From positions 248,001 through 312,000 of the forward strand of contig NZ_CP095071.1 of the NCBI RefSeq assembly GCF_022919575.1: 64,000 bases of DNA, given 5' to 3'. How positions within the stretch are numbered: position 1 is the first letter of the stretch; each line of letters starts with the position of its first letter. Below are positions 14,413 through 32,369 of this stretch, in pieces. The translations under genes and the position numbers were made by a program. The notes below the pieces were generated by a model. The model saw only the letters and a program-made list of their open reading frames with translations, had not been told where the DNA came from and ran no database searches. The stretch comes from Gracilibacillus salinarum (GTDB lineage Bacteria > Bacillota > Bacilli > Bacillales > Amphibacillaceae).

Positions 14413-14446
14413 TAAATAAGCTGAGATGTAAGTCTCAGCTTATTTA
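14413..14446 (+). terminator. Rho-independent terminator after sucD
   Basis: Perfect arms AAATAAGCTGAGA and TCTCAGCTTATTT with a 6-base loop. The T run is built into the right arm. It is palindromic enough to act for either strand. Confidence 0.82.
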
Positions 14447-14467
14447 CTATCTAAAGGATGGATGTAT

Positions 14468-31223: not shown

Positions 31224-32093
31224 ATGCTAAGATCAATGTATTCAGGCATTTCAGGTTTAAAAGGTTTCCAAACAAAACTGGATGTTATCGGTAATAACAT
31301 CGCGAATGTGAACACAACTGGTTATAAGAAAGGTCGTGTTACGTTTCAGGATATGATGAGTCAATCGGTATCAGGTGCAAGCGGTCCGACAAATATAAGA
31401 GGTGGGATCAACCCATCCCAAGTAGGGACAGGGGTGCAGCTAGGGTCAATTGACAATGTGCATACACAAGGTAACCGCCAGACAACGGGCCGTCCATTAG
31501 ATTTACAGCTTGAAGGTGACGGAATGTTCGTTTTTGCAACCGGTGAGAACGTGGATGGTGCTAACACAGAGGAAATGGATATTAGTTATTCAAGAGCCGG
31601 AAATCTATATCTTGATAACGAAGGTTACATCGTAAATGCAAATGGTCAATATTTACTAGGTCAAAATGGAACAGATGCAGATGGTAATCCGATTGAAGGT
31701 AACTCCAGAATCAAAATTCCTGATACGGCAGAGAGCTTCAGTATTCAAAGTAACGGTGTAGTCAACTACATTGAGAATGGTGAGACACAAGAGGCTGGTC
31801 AAATTCTTGTTGCAAAGTTTTCTAACCCAGGCGGTTTAAATAAATCAGGTTCTAACATGTTCCAAAATTCGGTGAACGCTGGAAGAATGGAAGATGCTGA
31901 AGGGAATTTCCTTTTTGAACCGGAATCTGACGGTACAGCCTCCATCGTATCTGGTGCGCTGGAAATGTCTAACGTGGATTTGTCAGAAGAATTTACTGAA
32001 ATGATTACTGCACAGCGTGGTTTTCAGGCAAATACTCGAATTATTACGACTTCTGATGAAATATTACAAGAATTAGTAAATCTAAAACGATAA
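31224..32093 (+). CDS. flgE: Flagellar hook protein FlgE (formerly FlgG)
   Basis: Building block of the flagellar hook. The 289-residue product starts MLRSMYSGISGLKGFQTKLD with the rod/hook signature VIGNNIANVNTTGYKKGR, and ends with the C-terminal motif (LSEEFTEMITAQRGFQANTR). The gene at this place in B. subtilis was first called flgG and later shown to encode the hook protein. The short length fits the Bacillus hook type. It follows AAAAAGGAG at a normal distance. Confidence 0.92.
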   Translation: MLRSMYSGISGLKGFQTKLDVIGNNIANVNTTGYKKGRVTFQDMMSQSVSGASGPTNIRGGINPSQVGTGVQLGSIDNVHTQGNRQTTGRPLDLQLEGDGMFVFATGENVDGANTEEMDISYSRAGNLYLDNEGYIVNANGQYLLGQNGTDADGNPIEGNSRIKIPDTAESFSIQSNGVVNYIENGETQEAGQILVAKFSNPGGLNKSGSNMFQNSVNAGRMEDAEGNFLFEPESDGTASIVSGALEMSNVDLSEEFTEMITAQRGFQANTRIITTSDEILQELVNLKR

Positions 32094-32147
32094 AAAGGGA
32101 GGCTGAGAGTTAAGGCAGCATGTAACCCTTAACTCTCTTCATCTATG
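32094..32147 (+). promoter_or_regulatory. Shine-Dalgarno separated from the swrD start by a hairpin
   Basis: GGGAGG at 32097-32102 is followed by CT, then a perfect 11-bp hairpin (GAGAGTTAAGG 32105-32115 with CCTTAACTCTC 32127-32137, 11-base loop), then TTCATCT and the ATG at 32145. No purine-rich site lies between the hairpin and the ATG. With the hairpin folded, the spacing becomes 9 bases, which is optimal. It may therefore bridge the ribosome site to the start. Confidence 0.65.
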
Positions 32148-32369
32148 ATTACATTAACAAAACTAAATGGTGATCAGATAACCGTCAATGCGGTGTTCGT
32201 CGAACGAGTGGAATCATTTCCTGATACAACGATCACCCTAATTAATCAGAAGAAATTATTTGTGAAAGAACAGGAAATTGTGGTGAAACAAAAAATCACA
32301 GAATTTTATAAGCAGATTGGTTTATATCAACTGCAACGAGAAGTAGGTGAACAACAAAATGAATCCTAG
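32145..32369 (+). CDS. swrD: SwrD / FlbD family protein
   Basis: Small protein (74 residues) of the FlbD family; in B. subtilis SwrD (YlzI) raises flagellar torque and is needed for swarming. The canonical start MITLTKLNGDQITVNAVFVE fixes the ATG. The rest includes FPDTTITLINQKKLFVKE and a polar helical end. Its ribosome site is separated by a hairpin. It overlaps fliL by 11 bases. Confidence 0.9.
   Translation: MITLTKLNGDQITVNAVFVERVESFPDTTITLINQKKLFVKEQEIVVKQKITEFYKQIGLYQLQREVGEQQNES

What the first reader, a model, noticed from the sequence alone, without database searches (positions are those of the whole stretch)
32094..32147. Hairpin bridges a distant Shine-Dalgarno to the swrD start codon
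The only purine-rich site before swrD (GGGAGG, 32097-32102) is 42 bases from the ATG. The gap is filled by a perfect 11-bp hairpin. Removing the hairpin leaves exactly 9 bases between site and ATG, the optimal spacing. The start itself is fixed by the conserved MITLTKLNG. This looks like structure-assisted initiation, as known for a few phage genes, and it could make SwrD output (motor torque, swarming) depend on RNA folding, temperature or helicase action.
Basis: partly seen in the sequence, partly recalled or inferred. Interest (0 to 1): 0.7.

Follow-up and report, generated by a model that had tools for sequence, protein, structure and literature searches.

The report
Hairpin-bridged ribosome-binding site before swrD
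In front of a small flagellar-motor gene, an RNA hairpin appears to fold away a stretch of message so that a distant ribosome-landing signal ends up at the right distance from the start codon, and the same layout, with varied hairpin sequences, recurs in most of the related bacteria examined.

Summary
It is not local. In 193 swrD loci from 41 GTDB families of the order plus one named relative, raw Shine-Dalgarno (SD) to start spacing has median 37 (9-364), but median 10 (quartiles 9-11) once the folded domain is removed; its sd is 2.5 against 6.5 in shuffles. 177 of 193 meet five criteria. Stem sequences vary widely, with compensatory changes. In two genomes the hairpin's apex holds 234 and 330 nt matching dispersed repeats while base stem, SD and spacing are kept. 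The upstream flagellar gene has an ordinary SD in 181 of 181 starts found. Best explanation: a structure-bridged ("split") SD, as reported for phage T4 genes 25 and 38, here chromosomal and order-wide. Elsewhere in the class 29 of 44 loci have a near SD, 18 of them 3' of a strongly folded stretch, so the hairpin may have a second role. Control by temperature or a helicase is unsupported. Nothing was tested at the bench.

The parts
31224..32093 (+). upstream flagellar gene (FlgG by NCBIfam; flgE in some scripts), stop codon 32091-32093
   Evidence: NF009278 402.8 bits, cut-off 350
32097..32102 (+). GGGAGG, the only strong Shine-Dalgarno found before swrD, 42 nt from the ATG
32105..32115 (+). 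5' arm of the hairpin (GAGAGTTAAGG)
32116..32126 (+). 11-nt loop (CAGCATGTAAC)
32127..32137 (+). 3' arm of the hairpin (CCTTAACTCTC)
32138..32144 (+). 7-nt spacer between hairpin and start codon
32145..32369 (+). swrD (FlbD family), start codon ATG 32145

Best explanation
This is a structure-bridged (split) ribosome-binding site. The 30S subunit pairs its anti-SD with GGGAGG (32097-32102). The 33-nt hairpin stays folded and is looped out, so the ATG lies about 9 nt of single strand from the SD and sits in the P site. In the order to which this genome belongs this is the usual way of starting swrD. Shown by sequence: layout, near-constant spacing with the hairpin removed, varied stem sequence with compensation, no near SD in most loci, long insertions only inside the hairpin. 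Inferred: that ribosomes use this SD with the hairpin folded, and that breaking the stem lowers SwrD.
For: (1) 193 in-order loci: raw SD-start spacing median 37, range 9-364; with the folded domain removed median 10, quartiles 9-11, sd 2.5 against a mean of 6.5 (minimum 6.0) in 30 shuffle sets; 82% at 7-12 nt against 37% in shuffles. One locus per family: 33 of 41 at or below the 1% level of their shuffles, sd 2.9 against 6.2. (2) 177 of 193 meet five criteria at once. (3) Covariation: in 25 chosen rows 6 of 9 pairs have changes on both sides (33 of 500 shuffles reach that), 96.8% of cells paired and covariation score 0.508 (0 of 500 reach either); in 12 genus rows 3 of 11 pairs (9 of 500), 93.2% paired (0 of 500), score 0.275 (1 of 500). 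(4) In the 177 loci SD-to-stem sd is 1.0, stem-to-ATG sd 1.8, hairpin span sd 33. (5) L094 and L123 carry 234 and 330 nt in the apex that match dispersed repeats (56 and 52 matching stretches in their genomes, itself and partial ones included), with 10-bp base helices and 12 and 10 nt of remaining spacing. (6) Near-SD score: median 3.5 for swrD against 9.4 for the upstream gene, where 181 of 181 starts found are ordinary. (7) Of 452 ORFs of 80 aa or more in 464 kb of this genome one has only a distal candidate, AT-rich and judged spurious.
Against: Purely comparative; no translation data. In 18 of 29 out-of-order loci with a normal SD the interval upstream of it is still strongly folded, so the hairpin is not there only to bridge. 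In context the SD is predicted only partly free: unpaired 0.41 (median, 188 loci; 0.33 in the window) and start codon 0.55 (0.42 in the window); freeing the SD costs 3.3 kcal/mol against 1.7 for the upstream gene. Spacing without the hairpin (10) is a little longer than the upstream gene's (mode 8). In the background scan 32 of 452 ORFs had a split-like layout at some in-frame start, in 31 of them beside another start with a near SD: the mechanical criteria alone do give chance hits. 11 of 193 swrD loci have a near SD of score 6 or more.
Confidence: 0.82

Rival explanations
1. The hairpin has its own, older job at the junction of the upstream flagellar gene and swrD (for example a 3' barrier that protects the upstream message, or an insulator between the genes), and the SD merely lies on one side of it.
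For: Outside the order 18 of 29 loci with a normal near SD keep a strongly folded stretch (z of -2 or lower) upstream of it. In the order the SD usually follows the upstream stop closely (median 1 nt).
Against: In the 177 loci the hairpin keeps its distance to the ATG (sd 1.8) and the SD (sd 1.0), and in 12 of them the SD lies 20 nt or more from the upstream stop with the block intact. A strong SD kept 5' of the hairpin, with no near SD of score 6 or more in 182 of 193 loci, is hard to explain unless it is used across the hairpin. This rival can be true together with bridging.
Confidence: 0.25
2. Translational coupling: ribosomes ending at the upstream stop codon slide to the swrD ATG and restart; SD and hairpin help to hold or stop them.
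For: Stop-to-SD distance is at most 5 nt in three quarters of the 193 loci.
Against: Coupling alone does not need near-constant hairpin-removed spacing or a folded stem, and 12 of 177 loci have the unit 20 nt or more downstream of the stop. It can coexist with bridging.
Confidence: 0.2
3. A regulatory switch or RNA thermometer: the hairpin opens, or spacer or coding sequence pairs with SD or start codon, to set SwrD output.
For: The SD is partly paired with the 3' spacer in the predicted ensemble (mean 0.29), and in the window's fold the SD and part of the start codon are in weak pairs.
Against: SD-spacer pairing equals that with shuffled spacers (0.364 against 0.361, p 0.92, 178 loci). The window's stem alone is predicted folded from 25 to 80 C. 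Opening it would lengthen the spacing. No Rfam family at gathering score. Start-codon pairing was not tested against shuffles.
Confidence: 0.07
4. An intrinsic terminator or attenuator after the upstream gene.
For: A strong hairpin soon after a stop codon.
Against: Only 5 of 190 loci have 5 or more T in the 8 nt after the hairpin, and the window has TTCATCTA there. The terminator scan allows loops of 3-8 only, so it is no test of this 11-nt loop. The operon continues with fliL and fliM.
Confidence: 0.02

Closest known systems
Bacteriophage T4 gene 25 (and gene 38) split translation initiation region (Nivinskas 1999; Malys and Nivinskas 2009, as described in the review PMC3014915, one section read)
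   Same: SD too far from the start; RNA structure between SD and AUG; structure brings spacing to a working value (27 to 11 and 22 to 5 nt there; 42 to 9 here); intercistronic junction; conserved structure.
   Different: Phage genes, the gene 25 arrangement limited to close T-even phages per that review, and shown there by mutations, reporters and DMS probing. Here a chromosomal flagellar gene, in most of an order, with varied stem sequences and insertions in the apex; untested at the bench.
E. coli thrS split ribosome-binding site (Sacerdot 1998, as described in PMC3936740, passages seen)
   Same: The ribosome accommodates a folded hairpin within its mRNA landing region; PMC3936740 says crystallographic data later supported this.
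   Different: There the hairpin is an operator lying 5' of the SD (position recalled); here it lies between SD and start. The out-of-order swrD loci with a near SD 3' of a folded stretch look more like the thrS order of parts.
Inhibitory hairpins at translation starts (T4 gene e, I-TevI; PMC3014915, same section read)
   Same: Hairpin at a translation start.
   Different: Those hold the SD or AUG in the helix and inhibit; here SD and AUG lie outside the 11-bp stem, with only weak predicted pairing of their own.

Membership tests
Structure-bridged (split) SD, T4 gene 25/38 type | SD beyond the working distance from the start codon | tested here: met
   42 nt in the window; median 37 nt in 193 loci
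Structure-bridged (split) SD, T4 gene 25/38 type | Stable hairpin lying between SD and start | tested here: met
   190 of 193 one folded domain; 160 of 193 at or below the 1% level of shuffles
Structure-bridged (split) SD, T4 gene 25/38 type | Working spacing once the hairpin is removed | tested here: met
   9 nt in the window; median 10, sd 2.5 against 6.5 in shuffles, range 4-21
Structure-bridged (split) SD, T4 gene 25/38 type | No other SD near the start | tested here: met
   Met in the window; median near-SD score 3.5; 11 of 193 loci reach 6, among them the hairpin-less L175
Structure-bridged (split) SD, T4 gene 25/38 type | Stem kept by compensatory change | tested here: met
   6 of 9 pairs in 25 selected rows; 3 of 11 in 12 genus rows
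Structure-bridged (split) SD, T4 gene 25/38 type | Stem-breaking changes lower translation; probing shows the stem | not testable with these tools
   needs reporters, SHAPE or DMS, toeprints
thrS-type split ribosome-binding site | Hairpin 5' of the SD (recalled) | tested here: not met
   The hairpin is 3' of the SD in the window; a folded stretch 5' of a near SD is seen in loci of other orders
Intrinsic terminator | T tract directly after the stem | tested here: not met
   TTCATCTA in the window; 5 of 190 loci
Known Rfam cis-regulatory RNA | Match at the family's gathering score | tested here: not met
   None in the window stretch (one sub-threshold hit inside swrD) or in 8 relatives
RNA thermometer | SD or start sequestered in a stem that melts in the physiological range | tested here: inconclusive
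   The 11-bp stem excludes SD and ATG and is predicted folded from 25 to 80 C, but weak pairs of SD and start codon are predicted in the window and were not studied over temperature

The most novel reading that the evidence does not exclude
swrD start signals across the Bacilli carry an ancient hairpin with a function of its own. During evolution the SD has moved from one side of it to the other, so that in a whole order initiation now runs across a folded RNA. The hairpin would then set the SwrD supply relative to the neighbouring flagellar gene in a way that tolerates almost any sequence, even mobile repeats, as long as the base stem holds.
Probability: 0.3. Interest if true: 0.78.

Novelty: new member of a known kind. 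Interest (0 to 1): 0.68.

Why it matters
Bridging of an SD by a folded hairpin is documented for a few phage genes. Here it appears to be the usual way a chromosomal gene is started in most of a bacterial order, with a large natural set of variants: over a hundred different stem bases, loops from a few to over 300 nt, and spacing outside the hairpin that drifts little. That gives a direct readout of what a ribosome tolerates between SD and start codon. It suggests that gene finders and spacing rules that require an SD close to the start may miss a real class of start site, and it raises a testable question: why a motor-power gene keeps a hairpin at its start.

Tried and rejected
Start-stop codon (ATG TAA) in the hairpin loop at 32120: absent in the nearest relative L002; the other loci were not checked systematically; taken as chance. 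SD-sequestering switch: SD-spacer pairing equals shuffled spacers. Terminator: no T tract. CsrA-type site: considered from recall only, not tested. Known RNA families: none at gathering score. fliM as a second control gene was weak: 139 of 185 starts ordinary, 20 of 185 with the best SD 20 nt or more away; my start-finding rule is probably wrong for many, so I rely on the upstream gene (181 starts found in 193 loci, all ordinary). The 8 f43 loci in the set come from such genomes and all pass the criteria. The genome named B. subtilis itself was not read. Literature: 10 searches. By titles and starts of abstracts none of the papers listed describes a bacterial SD-hairpin-start case or an RNA study of swrD/ylzI; one search showed 15 of 66 papers, and the listed papers were not opened apart from PMC3014915, PMC3936740 and PMC9195833 (passages or one section). 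Most subscription papers are not held; Hall 2018 and Malys 2009 could not be read.

Failures counted: the 16 of 193 that miss a criterion are L026, L057, L076 and L141 (spacing 4 or 17), L061, L062, L088 and L189 (weak near purine stretch), L124 (weak SD), L128, L131 and L142 (weak fold; by my reading the SD was picked inside the stem), L146 (weak hairpin and SD), L162 and L163 (two hairpins), L175 (ordinary SD, no hairpin). Choice of loci: 73 came with searches; 120 more were chosen by hand from the matches listed for breadth of genera and families, before their own DNA was seen but after the pattern had been seen in others. Alignment A1 uses 12 of the 16 genus loci (L010, L012, L014, L017 left out); A2 uses 25 of 101 f1 loci, picked because they looked alignable, which leans towards the structure. 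Of the 13 out-of-order split loci, 8 have interval z of -2 or lower and 5 do not. Of the 29 out-of-order loci with a near SD, 4 have intervals too short to test.

Full report
What is there. The flagellar gene at 31224-32093 (FlgG by NCBIfam) is followed by swrD (FlbD family, 32145-32369), fliL and fliM. Between stop and start stand GGGAGG (32097-32102), two bases, a perfect 11-bp hairpin with an 11-nt loop (32105-32137), seven bases, and the ATG. The 121-nt region folds better than 199 of 200 shuffles.

Relatives inside the order. SwrD is found in 145 of 159 family genomes and FlbD in 368 of 397 order genomes. I read 193 loci, from 41 GTDB families plus one named relative (L031, Salipaludibacillus neizhouensis). 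In all 193 a swrD start and the end of an upstream ORF could be placed. The picture is the same in most: AGGAGG-like SD, hairpin, short spacer, start. Stem sequences vary widely (107 distinct 6-base 5' arm starts among 190 single-domain loci).

Numbers. SD to start: median 37, range 9-364. With the folded domain removed: median 10, quartiles 9-11, range 4-21; 190 of 193 have one domain; 160 of 193 fold at or below the 1% level of their own shuffles, 175 at the 5% level. The spread with the domain removed is 2.5 nt, against 6.5 on average and 6.0 at least in 30 shuffle sets; 82% against 37% fall within 7-12 nt. With one locus per family (41): 31 against 15.5 expected within 7-12 nt, and 33 at the 1% level. 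Taking five criteria together (SD score 9 or more, no near SD, one domain, spacing 5-16, energy -6 or lower), 177 of 193 pass; 81 of 92 outside the window's own family pass; two families, each with one locus, have none. The failures are listed under Tried and rejected.

Where length varies. In the 177 loci the SD-stem gap has sd 1.0, the stem-ATG gap sd 1.8, the hairpin span sd 33 (16-354 nt). The distance from the upstream stop to the SD ranges from -4 to 93 nt over the 193 loci; in 12 of 177 it is 20 nt or more, and the block is intact there, with a somewhat longer remaining spacing (median 13 against 10). So the block goes with swrD rather than with the end of the upstream gene. In L014, L081, L094 and L123 the apex holds 105-330 nt while the base helix (10-17 pairs) and spacing (9-14 nt) are kept. 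The apex of L094 and of L123 match dispersed repeats, 56 and 52 matching stretches in their own genomes, itself and partial ones included. These are natural insertion experiments: length is free inside the hairpin and nearly fixed outside it.

Covariation. On 25 chosen loci of the family, 6 of 9 pairs show changes on both sides (a number that 33 of 500 shuffles also reach), 96.8% of cells are paired and the covariation score is 0.508 (no shuffle of 500 reaches either); slid versions fall to 42-67% paired. On 12 genus loci 3 of 11 pairs show it (9 of 500 shuffles), 93.2% are paired (0 of 500), score 0.275 (1 of 500), further pair types 9 (118 of 500). The 25 rows were picked as alignable, which favours the structure.

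Controls. The upstream gene in the same loci has an SD of score 6 or more in 181 of 181 starts found, at 5-12 nt, mostly 7-9; its best SD is 20 nt or more away in 1 of 181. swrD scores 3.5 (median) there and 11.9 at the distal site; 11 of 193 swrD loci reach 6 near the start. fliM was a poor control (see Tried and rejected). In the window plus 400 kb of the same genome, about a tenth of it, 452 ORFs of 80 aa or more were scanned: 424 have a near SD at some in-frame start, 27 neither kind, and one a distal-only candidate, a 98-nt AT-rich stretch of -7.8 kcal/mol that I judge spurious. At some in-frame start 32 of the 452 show a split-like layout, in 31 beside another start with a near SD, so the mechanical criteria alone do produce chance hits. 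It is the recurrence in one gene over some 40 families that carries the case.

Outside the order. Of 44 loci in the class but outside the order, 13 are split (10 in family f49, one each in f55, f65, f77), 29 have a near SD, 2 fit neither. Of the 13, 8 have strongly folded intervals (z of -2 or lower). Of the 29, 18 have such a stretch between the upstream stop and the near SD. Thus the SD tends to be on one side of the hairpin or the other. This supports that the distal SD is the real one in the order, since it is usually the only one. It also shows that the hairpin is not there only for bridging, or that it is a leftover.

Mechanism. Opening the hairpin is predicted to cost about 20 kcal/mol (median of 186 loci) and would leave SD and start some 37 nt apart. 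Leaving it folded gives about 10 nt. T4 genes 25 and 38 are reported to work this way, 27 to 11 and 22 to 5 nt (PMC3014915, one section read). That a ribosome can hold a folded hairpin is reported for thrS, where it lies elsewhere in the site (PMC3936740, passages seen; its place there is recalled). Against a simple picture, in context the SD is unpaired only 0.41 and the start codon 0.55 of the time (medians of 188 loci; 0.33 and 0.42 in the window), and freeing the SD costs more than for the upstream gene (3.3 against 1.7 kcal/mol), the largest share through the 3' spacer. That pairing is no greater than with shuffled spacers (178 loci), so I read it as incidental. The window's stem alone is predicted folded from 25 to 80 C, so a thermometer by melting of this stem is unlikely. 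Steps shown: geometry, conservation, compensation. Steps inferred: use by the ribosome, and the effect on SwrD.

What is known. SwrD enhances flagellar motor power under swarming conditions (Hall 2018, as cited in PMC9195833, passages seen; the paper itself is not held). By titles and starts of abstracts, no paper listed in the 10 searches describes a hairpin at its start or a bacterial SD-hairpin-start case; the library lacks most subscription journals, so this is a weak negative. Rfam has no matching family at gathering score.

Verdict. A hairpin-bridged SD is the best reading (0.82). By kind it is a new member of the T4 gene 25/38 class. By distribution it is unusual: chromosomal, found in most of an order, with little constraint on sequence. 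The 8 loci of family f43, all from genomes with SwrA as in B. subtilis, pass the criteria, so it can probably be tested in the standard laboratory species.

Noticed in passing
L194, last 60 nt before swrD: In family f66 the near SD of swrD lies inside a predicted 13-bp hairpin, an arrangement that would hide it; opposite in kind to the window's.
   Followed up: no
L094:1734-1967 and L123:1151-1480: Sequence matching dispersed repeats (56 matching stretches in G094, 52 in G139) sits inside the swrD hairpin; pieces of each also match in the other's genome (43 and 19 stretches).
   Followed up: partly
L175, stop codon to swrD: The one clear in-order exception: no hairpin, 16 nt between the genes, ordinary SD at 9 nt; its genome G230 has SwrA.
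   Followed up: no
window 14413-14450: A long perfect hairpin before the gene at 14462, followed by AGGATGG near that start; hairpin 5' of a possible normal SD.
   Followed up: no
window 1658, 8707, 21703, 60151: Other perfect stems of 11 bp or more; the first three are followed by T runs, terminator-like.
   Followed up: no
L134, L162-L164, L167, L168, L172, L173: Extra sequence, in some with what look like further hairpins, between the upstream stop and the SD or around it (read by eye).
   Followed up: no
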